Below, piece after piece: positions 114 through 35,692 of a stretch of DNA of 40,846 bases. Position 1 is the first letter of the stretch. The number at the start of each line of letters is the position of its first letter. The stretch comes from a virus. Below the pieces are notes generated by a model that was given only the letters and a program-made list of their open reading frames with translations, ran no database searches and had not been told where the DNA came from. The stretch spans positions 1 through 40,846 of IMG/VR virus record IMGVR_UViG_3300020204_000142; one strand, 5' to 3'. A program made the position numbers and the translations under genes.

Positions 114-3100
114 ATGGCCCGCGAATACTCGTCCGTACCAGAAAAAGACCTAGCCGCAGGCATCAATCAGCAAGCACCCGAAGACTCCATCCCCGCAGGC
201 TTTGTCGAGCATGCCATCAATGTGGACTTCAACTCGGAAGGCTTGGTCGAGAAACGTGCAGGCTTCCGAAACTACCTCGGCAATCTGCCCATCCGTATAG
301 CCGCAGTTAAGCAAGTCAGTGGCAGCCCTGGCCAGATTGTCTTCAACCTGACAAGCAGCGAGCATCCAAACCAAGATGTAGACTTAACTAACGTGCCGCC
401 CGGCCCCATCCTCGTCGTGGGCAGAACAAGTACAAGCCTGACAGAGTTTGGAAGTACTTACACTTTTCAGTACTACCCTACATTTGAGTCAAATCCACGC
501 AAAGTAATTCCTGCCACAGTCGCAGGAAGTCTCAGCTTTCCGCAGGCAGAACATGGCTTTAGTACAAACAATCTATTCGTAGGTGTGACACAAAGCCTCA
601 GTCAGACAAACAAAGATAACCAGCAGCTCTTCCTGAATGGAATCGAGATTAACACAACTACCGCAGATATTACTCTGCCTTACGATAATAAAGATGGCTC
701 AATCAGCACATTTGTATATGCAATCGCTGCACAAGGTGCCGGTACAGGTTACTCTAAGACGGCAACGGGAACTACCATTAGTATCCTTGGAACTGAGCAT
801 AACCTTAATACATTCAATATTCTGTGCCGAGTTTACCAGGTCGAGGCAGGCTTTTTGAAGGAAGTCATTCCTGCCGAAGTTACCGTCAACGAGAATAACG
901 GAGATGTGCTTGTAACCTTTTCCGAAAGCAATACATATAAGGTTCTTCTCTACGCGGCCCCTGTAGCTCAGCAATTTATTGACTCAGTCATTCCTGGAGC
1001 TACGCCCGGCAGTGGCGGTTCCTTCACCATCCCAGACCTTGAACAAGACTTCATCTTTCTTGACTGTTATCTGCGGGATGCTGTGACTGGAGTCCTAACC
1101 AAGGTCATGCCCGACGAAGTGAAAATTGACTCATTTACATCAACGGCTACGATTGAATTCTATAACCCATTCACGCAGGAAGCAAACATTGTCTTCTGCT
1201 GGGAATATGCCAGAGTCAAGACAGCCACACTGACAGTCACAGCCAACACTTCCATTGCCGCAAACTTTGAGGATGGCCAACCTGAGCTATCCATCTATGG
1301 CCTCGTGGCAGAGGAATTATTTCCGGCCAAAGAATCTCCCCGCAGTGGATGGATTCAGCATATCGACACCTACAAATCGGAAGGCTACAATACTGTCGTG
1401 GCGGGAATGGGATGGAATCTCTTCCAAGCCACCAAACAGGCCGATGCTGCATCGTATCTCAAGTCTACAGTGTTCTACCCTTCCCTGCGTGCCAGAGCGC
1501 GTTCCTCGGCCTTCCTTGGCCCTCTTTTCCACGAGCTAGTAGAAACTGAGTCAGAGATTGTTAGGACACGCGGGGCAGTCACCTTCGAGGGTGGTGCATC
1601 CGGCTGGGCAAAGGTGGACGGCATCGCTTGGTCCGAGGATGACCAAGGCTACTGGATTACAGTAGACACACCTGACAGACAGAATGTGACTAAGCCTGGA
1701 CAACCTCTCGTTGTATCCTTCACAGAGACGACTCGTTGGGGCGACCTGCTCAGCATCCGTGGGGCAGAACTTAAAGCCTTTGATGGAGAATGGCCAGTCT
1801 GGGAAGTGGATGACACAGTCGTAAACAAATACAAGGTGCTCATCAAGCCAGGCTTCACCTCGGCAGACTACGACTGTCTTAACTCCGGTGAAGCAGGAAT
1901 CTTCACTGACCGCTTTGTAATTGACCACCGTCCATTGCTCACAGCTGGTGATACGGTTACAGCACAATCCTTCCCGCAAGGAACACAGCTTGGCTACATC
2001 GGAACAGACCGCTCTGCCAATCCTTACCTGTACGTCTCAGGAGCAGTCGAGGAGATTCAGGTAGCCAATGGACAGCTTATCAGTCTTGGCCGCAATTCTA
2101 AGTATTGCTTCGGTCCACGCACCGCAGATGGACAGATACGCGCCTTCAATAACATAGTCGTCGCTATGCGTGGCGACAGTATCCTTGTTGCAGGCCGTGC
2201 CAATCCTACTGAAATTAGGTACATAGTCAGTCAAGAGATAAGTGGAATTACTGCAGAAGTTGTCGGAGAAGTGCTAACGCTGACAAGTGTAACCAATGCA
2301 CGTCAATTCTCGGTCGGACAACGTGTACTCCTGCATGACTTGGGCTACGACGGGCACGAATTTGAAGTAACAGAGATTGGTATTGATAATACTACGCTGA
2401 CACTTGCAGCGCCCGGTGTACGGGACATGGCTCCTCTTTCTAGCTGCAAGATTCTTCCGCAGCTCGAATTCCGAGAGATTGTAAGCATCGCCGACGATGC
2501 CTTCAACCGCAATACATTCACAGTCGAGGGACGTTGGGAAGCCATTGAAAAGCCGCAGATTGACTTAGCAAATGCTACCCTCTACAACGCAGTAGACGAA
2601 CGCATGACAGAACACTTCAAGTCTGACGAATACGGAACACAGTCAGTCATACGCTCGACAATGAGCCAGAACAATCTTTACCTGACGAACGGCAAGGACC
2701 CAATTCAGAAGTTTGATGGTCTGCACATTTATCGTGCAGGAGTGCCTCGCTGGAATCCTCAATTGTTTGTGCGCATACAAAAGACAGCAGGCAGTATTGC
2801 AAATGAAGGAACTTGTTGGTACTATTTCCGTCTAGGTGGACGTGACTCTAATGGTAACTTTGTCGTAGGCGCAAGTACAGGAGTAGAGGATTACAAGGTA
2901 GTATTGCCGAACAATACGTCATCTATCCATCTTCGCCTGGTCGGTCTGCCTGTCTGGGATAACTACGATTTTGAGAAACTAACTGTACAAATCTATCGTA
3001 CGGAAGTCTTTGCAAATAATACACCAATTGCGCCATTCTACCTCGTCGGCGAGTTGGAGATGCCGCAGACAAAAGGTGCAGGTTATCTTGACTTCATTGA

Positions 3101-5180
3101 TACAGAATCGAATAGTACCATTGTGCGTTTGCCACGGGATGGCGACTTAAATGCGACTGCCGGAGGTTCCTTGCTTGGTACAACCCTCAGTGAGCCATTG
3201 CGTGCTAAGTACATGACGGCATTGAATAATAGAATTATCTTGGCTAATCTTCGTGGTTATCAATCTCTGGAGTTTCGCTTTGCTAAAGCAAATGCTTCTG
3301 CCAAATTCTCTGATTTTGCTGGCAAAATATTTTCCATTTACAATGACTCGAATACTGTCGGCATAGCTACGGACATTCAGCACAAACTCTCCTTTCAATA
3401 TACCACGTACACGGGAGACGACGAACCTGACAATGTGGTTAAGACTGGAACGGAAAACTTTACTACCGCAAATCATATAAGATTTCCTTGTACTGTACCC
3501 GGACATGTGCAGGTTAAAGACTGGGTTTACTTAGCCGAAGTGAAGAATACTCCAGCACATAACGGTGATACCTTTGGGCTTGGTTGGTACCAGGTAACAA
3601 CCATAGATGAAAACAGAGCGTGGTTTGAAGTGTACGCTCCTTATGACGGAACCAATCCAGCCAAGATTGATGTAAACCATGCTGTCTTCCGTACAAGCAC
3701 AGCTCCCTTTGGCACAGTACCAATCTTGCTACATCTGCATGACAATAACTTTGAGTACAAGGATGCTAATGCGGATTCCATCCTGACAATCACACACCGC
3801 ACAGCTGCTGCAATCAATTGCGTAACACGTATGGTCAACTCTAACCTGACTGGACAAGAGACGTTTAAGCCTTGGATTATGGCAGATGCAGGCGGGGAGT
3901 TTGACCTGGGTACACTCCGTTTGCGTAAACCAAAGGACGGAACTAGCTTCTCAATTAGTTTTCCTGTTAACTTCCTGGCAAGTGACCTGTTTGTCATTTA
4001 TCGTGGCCTACAATATAGTGGCGCAACAACTCTGGACAGTTTAGCTTCCGTATTTCCGAGCCGTGTCATTTGTTCCTATCCAAACTTTCCTGAAGTATTT
4101 AACAAAGCAAGTCAACGACTTATTACAGCAAAAGATGAAGATTCAAATTTGCCTATTGATGTAAACGCTGCAGATGGCCAAGAGATTACTGGCATAATCC
4201 CCTTCTTCGGTGAGTCGGCTTTCGGTCAGGCAACCCGAGAATCCTTGCTTGTTGTCTTCAAAACTAACTCTATTTATCTAGTAAATATTAAGGTAGATAG
4301 AGTCTCTGGTATAGCAGACAATGAGGTCCAGAAGATTGAGTCGCAGGGACTTGGATGCACAGCCCCTTATTCGATTGCCCCGACTAAGGACGGCATCATG
4401 TTTGCCAATGAGTCAGGCATCTATAAGTTGACTCGGCAATTGACGGTCGAACCTCTCGGACAATTTGTGGACCGCATCTGGCGAAAAGAAGTAGACCTTG
4501 CACAACTCACGCTTGCGCAGGGACACCATTTCGGCGTAGGACGACAATACAAGCTAAGCGTTCCACTGCAGGACGCTAAGAATAACTCAGACGTACTTGT
4601 CTACGAACACACCCGCGAATCACGTGGACAACCGGGAGCATGGGGACGCTACGTGAATCACGAGGCTACAGGCTGGGCTAACTTGCTCGACGAAGAATTC
4701 TTTGGCACGGTGCATGGCCGTGTCTGTACACGCAATAAGTCTGCGACACGATGGGACTTCTCTGACCGTGGCGACGCAGTTGTGGCGACCGTAGACCTGC
4801 GTCCGAATGACCTGGGCATCCCGAATATTCGCAAGCGTCTCTTGCACTTGAGCGTTCATTTCCGTAATCCGCAGGAAGAGGGACTGAACATCAGTCAAGA
4901 AAGCACGACTGTGGCTCTGGCTACAGATTTGTATGAAGACTACTACGAGTGTAACAAGTATGAATCGCAGGGACTTTTTGCTAAGACAGGTATCTCTGAC
5001 TTGGGTTTACTAAAGGGAGAAACTATCCGCTTCAGTGTACCGACAAGCAAAGCTGTACAGTTCCAGCCCCGCATTGAGAATGCTGGCCTCTATGAGACCC
5101 TGCAATTCTCGGGTGTAACTTACAGGGTTTCTGCAATGACTACGAAGGGGACGAAGGAAGCCAAGGATACTGAGAAGTGA
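114..5180 (+). CDS. tail tubular / stabilisation-like virion protein (1688 aa)
   Basis: Probable tail tube or tail nozzle protein. The N-terminus carries a motif seen in podoviral tail tubular B and P22 gp10-type stabilisation proteins, in which a virion protein announces a reading like 'EGLVEKRAGF' about 40 residues in. Near the C-terminus (about residues 1360-1450) the segment GESAFGQATRESLLVVFKTN and the following SIYLV, GLGCTAPYSIAPTKDGIMFAN and GIYKL stretches resemble the beta-propeller-like region of that family. The rest is mostly beta-rich with few predicted helices. At 1688 aa it is far longer than T7 gp12 (about 800 aa), so extra domains are probably inserted in the N-terminal half (residues 80-500). 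The start is supported by AAGGAG 8 bases upstream. The family call is from motif resemblance only. Confidence 0.6.
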   Translation: MAREYSSVPEKDLAAGINQQAPEDSIPAGFVEHAINVDFNSEGLVEKRAGFRNYLGNLPIRIAAVKQVSGSPGQIVFNLTSSEHPNQDVDLTNVPPGPILVVGRTSTSLTEFGSTYTFQYYPTFESNPRKVIPATVAGSLSFPQAEHGFSTNNLFVGVTQSLSQTNKDNQQLFLNGIEINTTTADITLPYDNKDGSISTFVYAIAAQGAGTGYSKTATGTTISILGTEHNLNTFNILCRVYQVEAGFLKEVIPAEVTVNENNGDVLVTFSESNTYKVLLYAAPVAQQFIDSVIPGATPGSGGSFTIPDLEQDFIFLDCYLRDAVTGVLTKVMPDEVKIDSFTSTATIEFYNPFTQEANIVFCWEYARVKTATLTVTANTSIAANFEDGQPELSIYGLVAEELFPAKESPRSGWIQHIDTYKSEGYNTVVAGMGWNLFQATKQADAASYLKSTVFYPSLRARARSSAFLGPLFHELVETESEIVRTRGAVTFEGGASGWAKVDGIAWSEDDQGYWITVDTPDRQNVTKPGQPLVVSFTETTRWGDLLSIRGAELKAFDGEWPVWEVDDTVVNKYKVLIKPGFTSADYDCLNSGEAGIFTDRFVIDHRPLLTAGDTVTAQSFPQGTQLGYIGTDRSANPYLYVSGAVEEIQVANGQLISLGRNSKYCFGPRTADGQIRAFNNIVVAMRGDSILVAGRANPTEIRYIVSQEISGITAEVVGEVLTLTSVTNARQFSVGQRVLLHDLGYDGHEFEVTEIGIDNTTLTLAAPGVRDMAPLSSCKILPQLEFREIVSIADDAFNRNTFTVEGRWEAIEKPQIDLANATLYNAVDERMTEHFKSDEYGTQSVIRSTMSQNNLYLTNGKDPIQKFDGLHIYRAGVPRWNPQLFVRIQKTAGSIANEGTCWYYFRLGGRDSNGNFVVGASTGVEDYKVVLPNNTSSIHLRLVGLPVWDNYDFEKLTVQIYRTEVFANNTPIAPFYLVGELEMPQTKGAGYLDFIDTESNSTIVRLPRDGDLNATAGGSLLGTTLSEPLRAKYMTALNNRIILANLRGYQSLEFRFAKANASAKFSDFAGKIFSIYNDSNTVGIATDIQHKLSFQYTTYTGDDEPDNVVKTGTENFTTANHIRFPCTVPGHVQVKDWVYLAEVKNTPAHNGDTFGLGWYQVTTIDENRAWFEVYAPYDGTNPAKIDVNHAVFRTSTAPFGTVPILLHLHDNNFEYKDANADSILTITHRTAAAINCVTRMVNSNLTGQETFKPWIMADAGGEFDLGTLRLRKPKDGTSFSISFPVNFLASDLFVIYRGLQYSGATTLDSLASVFPSRVICSYPNFPEVFNKASQRLITAKDEDSNLPIDVNAADGQEITGIIPFFGESAFGQATRESLLVVFKTNSIYLVNIKVDRVSGIADNEVQKIESQGLGCTAPYSIAPTKDGIMFANESGIYKLTRQLTVEPLGQFVDRIWRKEVDLAQLTLAQGHHFGVGRQYKLSVPLQDAKNNSDVLVYEHTRESRGQPGAWGRYVNHEATGWANLLDEEFFGTVHGRVCTRNKSATRWDFSDRGDAVVATVDLRPNDLGIPNIRKRLLHLSVHFRNPQEEGLNISQESTTVALATDLYEDYYECNKYESQGLFAKTGISDLGLLKGETIRFSVPTSKAVQFQPRIENAGLYETLQFSGVTYRVSAMTTKGTKEAKDTEK

Positions 5181-33328: not shown

Positions 33329-33504
33329 ACAGATTCTCCCTCTACCTTGACCGAATAGCCAAGGCCAATGATTCCAAGCAGGTCACGGTCAGTCAGGGTC
33401 TTGCGGTTCACCAAGTCAGCGAACCGTTTGGCCACATCACACACGGGATAGCAAAGGCGATTCCCGTACACATCCTTCCATCGCACTGTTATTGTCAGGC
33501 TCAT
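33325..33504 (-). CDS. very small coupled protein (59 aa)
   Basis: Begins MSLTITVRWKDVYGNRLCYP; residues 22-45 are helical and two Cys lie at 18 and 22. GAGGAG lies 6 bases upstream. It starts 3 bases after the previous stop, and its stop overlaps the next ATG. Not recognised. Confidence 0.65.
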   Translation of the reverse strand: MSLTITVRWKDVYGNRLCYPVCDVAKRFADLVNRKTLTDRDLLGIIGLGYSVKVEGESV

Positions 33505-33507
33505 CGC

Positions 33508-33732
33508 TCACTCCTCTTCCAGATGAGATTCAATCTCATCTGCATTAAGGCTCCTCGGCCACTCGCCTTGGAGAACATGGTCTACCCATTGGGTAGCTTG
33601 AGCCAACTCTTCATCGTCTTTGCAGTTTATGGTAGCAATCTTGATGAGTTTGCCGTTGGTCTGAACCAACAGCTCCACTGTGTACAGCCACGCGGGGTGG
33701 CCGACAAGCGTCTTGTATCTTGCAATAGTCAT
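33508..33732 (-). CDS. small protein of unknown function (74 aa)
   Basis: Not recognised. A likely beta-beta-alpha fold (YTVELLVQTNGKLIKIATINC then an acidic helix). AAGGAGG lies 6 bases before ATG, and the start overlaps the upstream stop. Confidence 0.65.
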   Translation of the reverse strand: MTIARYKTLVGHPAWLYTVELLVQTNGKLIKIATINCKDDEELAQATQWVDHVLQGEWPRSLNADEIESHLEEE

Positions 33733-33926
33733 TCAGCACCTCCTTCCTTCGGAAGCGCAAGAAAACAGTCCGACCCGTCTCGGAACATGAGCCAGATTCG
33801 GCCAGTCTTGGACATGGCCAAATCAGCTGCGGCACACTCTTCGAGTGCCACATCGAGCAGTCCGTTGAACTCATCGAAAGATGAGCAAGCCTCAAGAAAC
33901 TCACGGAACAGTGTTGCATTGTCCAT
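33729..33926 (-). CDS. small protein of unknown function (65 aa)
   Basis: Not recognised. Helical N-terminal half (TLFREFLEACSSFDEFNGLLD) and a beta-like end (GRIWLMFRDGSDCFLAL). ATG 33926 with GAGG 6 bases upstream; the in-frame start at 34019 lies inside the previous gene. Confidence 0.6.
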   Translation of the reverse strand: MDNATLFREFLEACSSFDEFNGLLDVALEECAAADLAMSKTGRIWLMFRDGSDCFLALPKEGGAE

Positions 33927-33942
33927 AGGACACCTCGGAAAA

Positions 33943-34764
33943 TTAGGCTGCCGCAGCAGCCGATGTTTTTGAAAAAGCAAGGAACTTGTCCCAACCAGCT
34001 TGGTTGAGACAGAAACCATGCTCGGAACCTTGGCCTTTTAGCGAGCCTTTGGCTCGGAGTACGACAATCCTGCCGTCTGGACTACGTCCATCGAGGAACC
34101 TTGCATCGTGCAGGTCGCCGTCAATCAAGCGAGAGTCACTGAAATCGACGACGACTCCCTTGTCTACGACAACAGCCACATTGCCGCCTTGGCGGAGAAC
34201 ACGAACCGCGATGTTATGGTTCAGCTCACTCCGTGAGAAGGTGACGTGGTAGTTGCTTGGTAACAGACCTCGGGCAAAAGACATGCCCCGCGAGGTCTTC
34301 GTGTAATCATAGAATTGCACATCGGGGTGTGCAGCAACTATGGAACCCCAATGAATATCGGTTGTTCCGTTTAGCCTAATAGCTAAACGCTTTCCCTTCT
34401 TTGCGGCAAGCCGCTTGGCTCGGTTAATCTCAGCGTGAAGCTGAGCGAAAAAGTTGAACGTGTCAAGCAAGAATTGCTTGGCTTTGCGAATTCTTGCACG
34501 ATTCACTTCAGGAAACATCCTCGCTCTACCTTGATGGTAGAGGCAGTCCTCTCTGCATTGCTTGGTGGAAGCAGTGCAGAGGTTGTACTGAACTCCTAGC
34601 TCCGCTAGGAATTGCTTTTCCTCTTGGCTCATCTCGCCGAAGGCGACCTCGGCTGGAGCCATATAGAGGATGAGTGTTTCCCACTCATCGCCATGCAGCA
34701 AAGCCGATTTGAGCAGCTTTGCGTTGGAGACGTCCTTGCTTAGCAAGGGTTGACAGTTCTGCAT
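33943..34764 (-). CDS. unknown early phage protein with Cys cluster (273 aa)
   Basis: Contains YNLCTASTKQCREDCLYHQG (about residues 61-80, three Cys in 11 residues), a long basic helical region, RLNGTTDIHWGS near 135 and a beta-rich C-terminal domain ending in five Ala. The Cys cluster followed by the RLNGT strand recalls a family of uncharacterised phage proteins of the mycobacteriophage gp88 kind, but I cannot confirm membership. ATG 34764 has GAGG 6 bases upstream; a GTG at 34776 is less likely. It is the first sizeable gene of the operon. Confidence 0.65.
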   Translation of the reverse strand: MQNCQPLLSKDVSNAKLLKSALLHGDEWETLILYMAPAEVAFGEMSQEEKQFLAELGVQYNLCTASTKQCREDCLYHQGRARMFPEVNRARIRKAKQFLLDTFNFFAQLHAEINRAKRLAAKKGKRLAIRLNGTTDIHWGSIVAAHPDVQFYDYTKTSRGMSFARGLLPSNYHVTFSRSELNHNIAVRVLRQGGNVAVVVDKGVVVDFSDSRLIDGDLHDARFLDGRSPDGRIVVLRAKGSLKGQGSEHGFCLNQAGWDKFLAFSKTSAAAAA

Positions 34765-34772
34765 TTTGCACC

Positions 34773-34865
34773 TCACTTCAAACGGGAAACGATGTAGTCT
34801 CGAACTACATCGGATAACGTCAGGAAAACATAAGTAGTCACGAAAACAGTCAGTAAAAACAACAT
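34773..34865 (-). CDS. very small membrane protein, first gene of the operon (30 aa)
   Basis: One membrane helix (MLFLLTVFVTTYVFLTL) with a short charged end. ATG 34865 has GGGGG 5 bases upstream; an in-frame ATG at 34877 with AAGG is an equal alternative, giving 34 aa. A longer reading to 35048 runs into the hairpin-rich region and is less likely. Its stop is 8 bp before the next gene. Confidence 0.45.
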   Translation of the reverse strand: MLFLLTVFVTTYVFLTLSDVVRDYIVSRLK

Positions 34866-35220
34866 GGTAACCCCCATTTCGGCCTTATTCAGCTCCGGCC
34901 TCATCAGTGTACCCAAGAAGGTACATATGGGTGCGTGCATCCTGCACTCCAAGGCGGTCTCTTGTCTGCAAGGCATCTCTCGACGCGAGCAGGCAAGGCG
35001 TTCTCTTGGATTCTTGTCGCCTAATTGCAGCTCGTCCACGCTTGTCACACCCTCGGATGTGACTCACATCTCTGAACCACGTTCAGCTCGCCGTCGGTTG
35101 TTAACCGATTCGTACACGGTAGGCACTCCTCCGAGGAGGTACATGCTCCGCAAGGCGCGTCTCCGTAACCCCGCAGGGCTGGGAGCGGTAGGAGCGTCAG
35201 TTGACCGTGTATCGTCCGAC
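34866..35220. ncRNA. hairpin-rich region, candidate structured leader RNA
   Basis: About 350 bp with at least six closely spaced perfect inverted repeats: TGTACC/GGTACA (34908-34925), GTCACA/TGTGAC (35044-35063), GATGTGA/TCACATC (35056-35070), CTGAAC/GTTCAG (35072-35086), TCGGTT/AACCGA (35094-35108) and CTCCTC/GAGGAG (35126-35138). An 8-bp pair TACACGGT/ACCGTGTA (35113-35120 with 35204-35211) encloses a further part. A rough uniform-base estimate gives fewer than one 6-bp stem with such short loops in this length. A minus-strand promoter candidate lies upstream at 35277-35303, so it would be the leader of the early operon. A plus-strand RNA is equally possible. No protein gene of good quality spans it. 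Confidence 0.5.
34951..35008. repeat. 14-bp direct repeat, 13 of 14 matching
   Basis: AAGGCGGTCTCTTG at 34951-34964 and AAGGCGTTCTCTTG at 34995-35008, 44 bp apart. They lie within the hairpin-rich leader and are not part of a coding repeat. Two protein-binding sites or a duplicated RNA element are possible. Confidence 0.6.
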
Positions 35221-35277
35221 ACAAGGAGTCAAGCTGAGCGACCCGACATTTTCCTTTACGGCAAAACGAAAAAATAA
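35143..35277 (+). CDS. possible small basic protein (44 aa)
   Basis: MLRKARLRNPAGLGAVGASV, then a polar tail ending in LYGKTKK. GAGGAGG lies 3 bases before the ATG, a strong but tight site that is itself one arm of the CTCCTC/GAGGAG inverted repeat, so it could be hidden in a hairpin. The frame is open upstream to 34864 but without a usable start. The coding potential is not distinctive, and the region may instead be noncoding. Confidence 0.3.
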   Translation: MLRKARLRNPAGLGAVGASVDRVSSDTRSQAERPDIFLYGKTKK

Positions 35278-35303
35278 CTTTAACAACAATTTGCTTTTGT
35301 CAA
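35277..35303 (-). promoter_or_regulatory. putative early promoter for the minus-strand operon
   Basis: On the minus strand TTGACA (35303-35298) is a perfect -35 box, followed after 15 bp by TAAAGT (35282-35277), with TG one base before it as an extended -10. It lies upstream of the hairpin-rich leader and the operon beginning at 34865. The spacing is short, which lowers confidence, but the extended -10 may compensate. Confidence 0.45.
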
Positions 35304-35527
35304 TAATCTCGGCAAGTTGAAGCCTCGCAAGCTTGTGAGAGTAGCGCGAGAGTCAGCTGCGCCTGCGGTTCCTGCGCCGCGTCCAGAGAAGAGGCGCGTG
35401 TGTCGTGTGATGCACGTGTACACTAATAGAAGAAAAGAAAGATGCACATTGCGCTCAAGGTTTTTGCAGAAGTGCCGATAGGTAGGGTGGAGCAAGTGAA
35501 CGCTCCGAACCACTAAGGGGTGCAATC
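35278..35527. other. intergenic region between divergent genes
   Basis: No supported gene. It holds the near-palindrome CTCGCAAG/CTTGTGAG (35327-35342), GCGCCT/AGGCGC arms (35359-35364 and 35392-35397), the perfect palindrome GTGTACAC near 35420, and GGAGC/GCTCC (35489-35506) just before the ribosome-binding site of the 54-aa gene. A 24-codon reading frame from ATG 35442 has only a weak ribosome-binding site. Confidence 0.4.
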
Positions 35528-35692
35528 ATGAAATACTCAATCAAGTACAAGTTGAACGGTGAGACTCTCTACGCAATCAAGAGCAACGTTGCTGCATGGC
35601 TTGAGTTCATGCAAGCCCAAGGTCTCGAGATTGAGGTCTTAGAAATCCAGCCCGTAAGGGCTGCAGCAAGGGACAGCGGGGCGGCCGCGTGA
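35528..35692 (+). CDS. small plus-strand protein (54 aa)
   Basis: Too short for usual callers. MKYSIKYKLNGETLYAIKSN followed by VAAWLEFMQAQGLEIEVLEI and an Ala/Arg-rich end: a plausible beta-alpha-beta mini-domain. AAGGGG lies 7 bases before ATG. It is followed by a long hairpin. Not recognised. Confidence 0.65.
   Translation: MKYSIKYKLNGETLYAIKSNVAAWLEFMQAQGLEIEVLEIQPVRAAARDSGAAA

What the first reader, a model, noticed from the sequence alone, without database searches (positions are those of the whole stretch)
34866..35220. Dense cluster of perfect inverted repeats upstream of the early operon
Six or more 6-8 bp perfect inverted repeats with loops of 8 nt or less occur in about 350 bp, plus an 8-bp long-range pair (35113-35120 with 35204-35211) that closes a larger domain. 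A rough uniform-base count predicts under one. The region is poor in believable coding sequence and lies between a minus-strand promoter candidate and the first early gene. It may be a structured leader RNA or noncoding RNA controlling the operon.
Basis: partly seen in the sequence, partly recalled or inferred. Interest (0 to 1): 0.7.

Follow-up and report, generated by a model that had tools for sequence, protein, structure and literature searches.

The report
Self-cleaving leader RNA of phage operon
The hairpin cluster is the folded start of a phage's first messenger RNA; it ends in a hammerhead ribozyme, an RNA that should cut itself and free a separate ~322-base RNA just ahead of the first gene, in a poorly known phage group whose early promoters look like those of host swimming genes.

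Summary
The region holds 5 perfect hairpins (stem >=6, loop 3-8) against 0.41 expected, and the excess continues over 33.1-35.1 kb. The region is the 5' leader of the minus-strand early operon. Two relatives (G001, L092) conserve it better than neighbouring genes, with single-base indels but heavy base-pair covariation: 21 pairs changed on both sides, 7.5 expected from shuffles, 0-2 when the structure is slid.

Its 3' end (34931-34873, minus) is a type III hammerhead ribozyme with an intact catalytic core. The same element lies just upstream of the first early ribosome-binding site in G001, L092, G002 and G050; G036 carries two. A strict scan finds 6 where chance gives 0.05.

Predicted working: transcription starts near 35247 from a sigma28/FliA-like promoter; the leader folds; the hammerhead cuts between 34926 and 34925, freeing a 322-nt RNA and an mRNA with a 5'-OH end and an exposed Shine-Dalgarno sequence. 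Cleavage, start site and function are inferred.

FliA-type promoters are lineage-wide on the early strand (51 against 2 on the other; shuffles about 0.15), with no phage sigma factor found. Phage hammerheads are known. The conserved RNA attached, the Shine-Dalgarno overlap and the FliA-type early promoters appear new.

The parts
35255..35282 (-). Promoter of the leader, sigma28/FliA-like: -35 TAAAGTTA (35282-35275), 12-nt spacer, -10 GCCGTAAA (35262-35255)
   Evidence: 3 mismatches to TAAAGTTT-N11-GCCGATAA (consensus in PMC2859248). Same place in G001, L092 and G002. FliA-type sites (<=2 mismatches) in 11 lineage genomes: 27 on the early strand, 1 on the other, 0.15 per strand in shuffles. Independent set of 14 loci: 24 against 1, shuffles 0.0.
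34926..35247 (-). Predicted 322-nt 5' cleavage product (structured noncoding RNA), from the predicted start of transcription to hammerhead position A17
   Evidence: Conserved block starts at the predicted +1. Length 322 nt in window and G001, 292 in L092. Covariation. Start site is inferred.
35188..35247 (-). Domain P1, nearly invariant in sequence (55/60 and 58/60 identical to G001 and L092)
35158..35187 (-). Domain P2, hairpin with UGCG loop; two inner C-G pairs become U-A and G-C in relatives
35089..35157 (-). Domain P3, multi-helix; small hairpin 109-120 of alignment A7 has 3 of 3 pairs changed on both sides
35011..35088 (-).
34948..35010 (-). Domain P4, long hairpin, 8 of 20 pairs changed on both sides
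   Evidence: helices 10-12
34935..34947 (-). Small invariant hairpin P5 (GTGCAGGATGCAC)
34873..34931 (-). Type III hammerhead ribozyme; core CUGAUGA 34907-34901, GAA 34880-34878, A15.1 34877; stems I/II/III 7/4/5 bp
   Evidence: Rfam RF00008 34.3 bits, E 1.6e-5 on the region (gathering 48.5); own scanner; MFE fold of the segment; covariation
34925..34926 (-). Predicted self-cleavage site, between A34926 (H17) and U34925
   Evidence: Position follows from the hammerhead alignment; cleavage itself not tested
34871..34875 (-). Shine-Dalgarno-like GGGGG; first three G lie in the 3' strand of stem III (34877-34873)
   Evidence: similar overlap in G001, L092 and G050
34773..34865 (-). First early ORF, 30 aa, predicted membrane peptide; counterparts in G001 and L092 at the same place
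33943..34764 (-). GP88-family gene (PF17338, phrog_1617); coding sequence has 11 perfect hairpins
   Evidence: 11 hairpins against 0.95 in synonymous-codon shuffles, 0/300
35455..35481 (+). Divergent FliA-like promoter candidate TCAAGGTT-N11-GCCGATAG, upstream of the + strand ORF at 35528
   Evidence: single site, 3 mismatches, weak

Best explanation
The cluster is the 5' leader RNA of the phage's minus-strand early operon. Host RNA polymerase, probably carrying the flagellar sigma factor sigma28/FliA, starts near 35247. The nascent leader folds into a conserved multi-domain RNA (P1-P5) and then a type III hammerhead ribozyme. The ribozyme cuts the transcript between 34926 and 34925. This frees a 322-nt noncoding RNA ending in a 2',3'-cyclic phosphate and leaves an mRNA with a 5'-OH end and a 60-nt untranslated region. 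Because the 3' strand of stem III carries part of the Shine-Dalgarno sequence, cutting should let the 5' strand leave and open the ribosome-binding site of the first early gene. Shown: conserved RNA secondary structure on the minus strand, the hammerhead consensus, its recurrence at the same place in relatives, and the promoter-motif statistics. Inferred: cleavage in vivo, the exact transcription start, sigma28 use, Shine-Dalgarno unmasking, and any separate role of the 322-nt RNA.
For: Leader conserved at 78% nt identity with G001 while aligned coding DNA is mostly 66-74%. Three-way alignment: 98.6% of pair cells canonical, 21 pairs with double changes against 7.5 in shuffles and 0-2 when slid. 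Hammerhead found by Rfam's model in window, G001, L092, G002, G036 and G050. My strict scanner finds 6 in the first 11 genomes against 0.05 expected from shuffles; 26 other phages with a GP88-family gene have none beyond two 14.8-bit matches. In window, G001, L092, G002 and G050 it sits directly before the first ribosome-binding site downstream. Same 322-nt spacing from predicted +1 to cleavage site in window and G001 despite indels. FliA-type sites are almost all on the early strand. No sigma-factor domain in 11 genomes, with the controls ringing.
Against: No match reaches Rfam's gathering score (24-39 against 48.5 bits). No cleavage, RNA-seq or start-site data. The consensus structure rests on three related sequences and was derived from the same alignment. 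Hammerheads are patchy in the lineage (6 of 25 records searched; some records are fragments). The leader promoter itself has three mismatches and a 12-nt rather than 11-nt spacer. In G002 the Shine-Dalgarno lies next to stem III rather than inside it, and the G002 hammerhead is not the minimum-energy fold of its segment. Full-length MFE folds of the window leader do not show the hammerhead as the global optimum.
Confidence: 0.77

Rival explanations
1. A purely cis-acting regulatory leader (riboswitch-like or an antitermination RNA for the ~19-kb early operon); the hammerhead only trims the mRNA 5' end and the released RNA is waste.
For: P1 is nearly invariant in sequence over strong divergence, as expected of a protein-binding or ligand-binding site; helices P1/P3 and the long-range 8-bp pair are mutually exclusive, which would suit a switch. 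Phage put RNAs are a precedent (own knowledge).
Against: No Rfam match apart from the hammerhead. No terminator-like hairpin with a U-run inside the leader on the minus strand. Cutting would separate most of the leader from the mRNA.
Confidence: 0.35
2. DNA-level element: operator sites, replication origin or packaging signal made of inverted repeats.
For: Region lies between divergent operons; inverted repeats are present on both strands by definition.
Against: Changes keep pairing rather than sequence, some through G-U pairs on the minus RNA strand; the hammerhead core is strand-specific; wobble-containing hairpins in the downstream genes exceed expectation on the mRNA strand (28 against 12.0) but hardly on the other (9 against 7.3).
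Confidence: 0.05
3. Protein-coding sequence (for example the + strand 137-aa ORF at 34864-35277) with chance hairpins.
For: Open frames of 91-137 aa cross the region.
Against: Pairwise indels against G001 are 3,1,2,1,1,1,1,6,5 nt, so most break any frame; substitutions follow stems.
Confidence: 0.03
4. The hammerhead is a relic or an inactive look-alike and only the structured leader matters.
For: Scores under Rfam's gathering score; PMC3088659 reports that 14 of 18 consensus hammerheads cleaved in vitro, so some do not.
Against: Core intact in all six phages and stems covary (5 of 6 stem I pairs changed on both sides), which a relic would not keep.
Confidence: 0.12

Closest known systems
HHphage hammerhead of haloviruses HF1/HF2 (PMC3088659)
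   Same: Hammerhead a few nt upstream of the start codon of the first ORF of an early polycistronic transcript; the mapped transcript 5' end falls within three nt of the cleavage site there
   Different: Variant core in an archaeal virus; the passage read describes no conserved structured RNA upstream and no FliA-type promoter
Prophage hammerheads such as the triple array of Agrobacterium tumefaciens around ardA (PMC3088659)
   Same: Hammerheads between phage genes on a polycistronic RNA; G036 here, with type II and type III copies, resembles this
   Different: In the window there is a single copy at the end of a conserved ~320-nt leader
Rfam RF00008 Hammerhead_3
   Same: All core nucleotides, three helices and open stem III
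   Different: Scores 24-39 bits, below the curated 48.5
sigma28/FliA promoters, TAAAGTTT-N11-GCCGATAA (PMC2859248, PMC4183435); Bdellovibrio attack-phase promoters TTAAG-N16-CCGATA (PMC3627812)
   Same: Both boxes and spacing (N11-N12) of the early-strand sites of this phage lineage
   Different: Those drive host motility or attack-phase genes; here they would drive phage early genes

Membership tests
Type III hammerhead ribozyme | Core C3 U4 G5 A6 N7 G8 A9, G12 A13 A14, A15.1-U16.1, H17 (not G) | tested here: met
   intact in window, G001, L092, G002, G036; the same motif reads directly in G050
Type III hammerhead ribozyme | Stems I and II closed by loops, stem III open | tested here: met
Type III hammerhead ribozyme | Covariation in the stems | tested here: met
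   helices 14-16: 7 pairs with both sides changed, no unpaired cells
Type III hammerhead ribozyme | Score above Rfam gathering threshold | tested here: not met
   34.3 bits against 48.5. This is a curator's cut-off for automatic calls, not a structural feature of the family
Type III hammerhead ribozyme | Loop I-loop II tertiary contact for fast cleavage | not tested
   Not modelled
Type III hammerhead ribozyme | Self-cleavage giving 2',3'-cyclic phosphate and 5'-OH | not testable with these tools
   Needs in vitro transcription
sigma28/FliA promoter class | TAAAGTTT-N11-GCCGATAA boxes, in the lineage as a whole | tested here: met
   51 early-strand against 2 other-strand sites with <=2 mismatches
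sigma28/FliA promoter class | The same for the window's own leader promoter | tested here: inconclusive
   3 mismatches and N12; the same site stands before the leaders of G001, L092 and G002
sigma28/FliA promoter class | Transcription depends on FliA | not testable with these tools
   Host unknown
Known Rfam leader or ncRNA family (35247-34935) | Match to any Rfam 15 model | tested here: not met
   only the hammerhead part matches at E <= 1

The most novel reading that the evidence does not exclude
A little-known lineage of ~60-kb phages ties its infection programme to host motility by using the host flagellar sigma factor for early transcription. In one branch, the first transcript is processed by its own hammerhead ribozyme, which releases a conserved ~320-nt RNA that acts separately on host or phage and uncovers the ribosome-binding site of the first early gene.
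Probability: 0.3. Interest if true: 0.82.

Novelty: new variant of a known kind. Interest (0 to 1): 0.68.

Why it matters
Hammerheads have been known in phages since 2011, but their purpose is still an open question in the papers read here (PMC3088659, PMC6155905). Here one sits at a fixed place: after a conserved folded RNA and overlapping the first ribosome-binding site of an early operon, with the same placement in divergent relatives. That makes two roles directly testable: release of a noncoding RNA and ribozyme-gated translation. The FliA-type early promoters would be an unusual way for a phage to restrict gene expression to swimming (or, in a Bdellovibrio-like host, attack-phase) cells; I found no description of this in the held literature.

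Tried and rejected
Rfam at gathering threshold: nothing. Megablast and distant blastn against 50,697 phage records: no real relative of the leader. The first idea, that the hairpin excess was general around GP88 genes, was weak: relatives show only mild excess. N4-type hairpin promoters were considered from memory, but no giant virion RNA polymerase was recognised and the covarying stems are RNA-like. A viroid-like circular RNA needs two ribozymes: only one is in the window, while G036 has two but with genes between them. The window's own type II hammerhead search was negative. A covariance model of the 5' domain found no further homologue in the pol relatives G030-G036 or G002, so the 322-nt RNA is so far known only from three phages. 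Genome-collection scans for the DNA polymerase and for the invariant leader block found nothing. MAFFT alignment of the five hammerheads (A8) misaligned G002, so it was not used for pair counts. The search for a single-subunit phage RNA polymerase is not informative because its control did not ring.

Full report
What is there. The window is a 40.8-kb virus record without end repeats. Plus-strand genes run from 36.6 kb to the end and from 0.1 to 15.8 kb; minus-strand genes run from 34.8 kb down to 16.1 kb. The minus genes include a polymerase-A type DNA polymerase, a helicase, a dUTPase and a GP88-family gene. The finding lies at the divergence point, in the 5' leader of the minus-strand operon.

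The observation. Five perfect hairpins (stem >=6, loop 3-8) occur in 34866-35220 against 0.41 in dinucleotide shuffles, and the long-range 8-bp pair is present. The excess is wider than reported: it covers about 33.1-35.1 kb and includes genes. Single-sequence folding energy is only mildly unusual.

Homologues. A 62.6-kb relative (G001, polymerase 69% identical) is syntenic; its leader matches window 34929-35326 at 78% nucleotide identity, while aligned coding DNA is mostly 66-74%. A third leader is on L092. Pairwise indels are mostly 1-2 nt, which argues against a conserved protein frame. On the three-way alignment A6 the consensus structure has 93 pairs with 98.6% of cells canonical; 21 pairs change on both sides, against 7.5 in shuffles and 0-2 when the structure is slid by 1-3 columns. 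The structure was derived from the same alignment, so the slid control favours it somewhat; the number of double changes is the stronger point.

The ribozyme. Rfam's type III hammerhead model matches 34933-34871 on the minus strand at 34.3 bits (E 1.6e-5 for the region, 8.9e-4 for the whole window) and the same place in G001 and L092. The core CUGAUGA...GAAA is intact. Stem I is rewritten in 5 of 6 pairs between relatives with pairing kept. De novo folding of the alignment and of the single segments gives the three-stem shape, except for G002. The same ribozyme lies in the leader of G002 (38.9 bits; polymerase about 40% identical), in G036 (type III 39.3 bits plus a type II copy, 35.1 bits) and in G050 (39.2 bits). 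A strict scanner over 11 genomes finds 6 hammerheads, with 0.05 expected from shuffles. Of 30 records searched, the 26 other GP88-bearing ones have none beyond two 14.8-bit matches; most other members of this lineage also lack it, so it is a branch feature or often lost.

Position. In window, G001, L092 and G050 the 3' strand of stem III runs into the Shine-Dalgarno sequence of the next ORF; in G002 the Shine-Dalgarno follows immediately. In window, G001 and L092 that ORF encodes a short membrane peptide. From the predicted transcription start (35247, first base of the conserved structure) to the cleavage site is 322 nt in both window and G001.

Promoter. Upstream of the leader, window, G001, L092 and G002 share TAAAG-T-rich-GCCGTNAAG. 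This resembles the FliA consensus TAAAGTTT-N11-GCCGATAA (PMC2859248). Across 11 lineage genomes, sites with at most 2 mismatches and N11-N12 number 27 on the early strand and 1 on the other, with 0.15 per strand in shuffles; 22 of 27 are followed by a ribosome-binding site and start codon within 90 nt. In 14 further loci found later the counts are 24 and 1, shuffles 0.0. No sigma-factor domain was found in 11 genomes, so the host's FliA is the likely reader; the window's own promoter, with 3 mismatches, is a weaker case than the lineage. Bdellovibrio attack-phase promoters (TTAAG-N16-CCGATA, PMC3627812) are also close, but the host is unknown.

Coding hairpins. The GP88 coding sequence has 11 perfect hairpins against 0.95 with synonymous codons shuffled (0/300); G001's different GP88 has 6 against 1.2 (0/300); genes farther down do not stand out. 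Hairpins containing G-U pairs exceed expectation on the mRNA strand (28 against 12.0) but hardly on the complement (9 against 7.3). This points to selection for structure in the first part of the early mRNA. G002 does not show it, and I have no tested explanation; slower decay of a 5'-OH mRNA or escape from RNA-directed defence are guesses.

Mechanism. Shown by sequence: conserved folding on the minus strand, hammerhead consensus, fixed position, promoter statistics. Inferred: self-cleavage, a free 322-nt RNA, Shine-Dalgarno unmasking, FliA dependence. The nearest precedent is the HHphage hammerhead of haloviruses HF1/HF2, 13 nt upstream of the first early ORF, where the transcript 5' end maps to within three nt of the cleavage site (PMC3088659).

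Novelty. Phage hammerheads are known, so this is a new variant of a known kind. The attached conserved RNA (no Rfam family), the overlap of stem III with the Shine-Dalgarno sequence and the FliA-type early promoters were not found described in the held library; that library misses most subscription papers, so absence there is weak evidence.

Noticed in passing
window 33500-34800 (minus): GP88 and the next two genes carry many short perfect hairpins within coding sequence, far above synonymous-codon shuffles for GP88, and the excess sits on the mRNA strand by a G-U pair test. Also in G001 and L092 but not G002.
   Followed up: partly
G030-G033, G036 and loci L144-L164: Lineage-wide FliA/sigma28-type promoter sites on the early strand, most followed by a ribosome-binding site and start codon.
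   Followed up: partly
L140 1931-1049 (G036, minus): Type II and type III hammerheads about 800 nt apart with small genes between, plus a hammerhead-like motif with one extra base at about 1690-1625 just before a ribosome-binding site and a possible 3' remnant near 1407; a strong terminator-like hairpin follows the type III copy.
   Followed up: partly
window 33943-34764 and L088 10842-11525: The GP88 gene after the leader differs sharply between window and G001 (about a third identical over part of its length) although flanking genes are syntenic, as if the gene had been swapped behind a constant leader.
   Followed up: no
window 114-5180: A 1688-aa protein with no match at all in 50,697 phage records; the lineage seems to lack characterised members.
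   Followed up: no
window 35455-35481: Divergent plus-strand FliA-like promoter candidate before the ORF at 35528; the corresponding G001 stretch looks similar.
   Followed up: no
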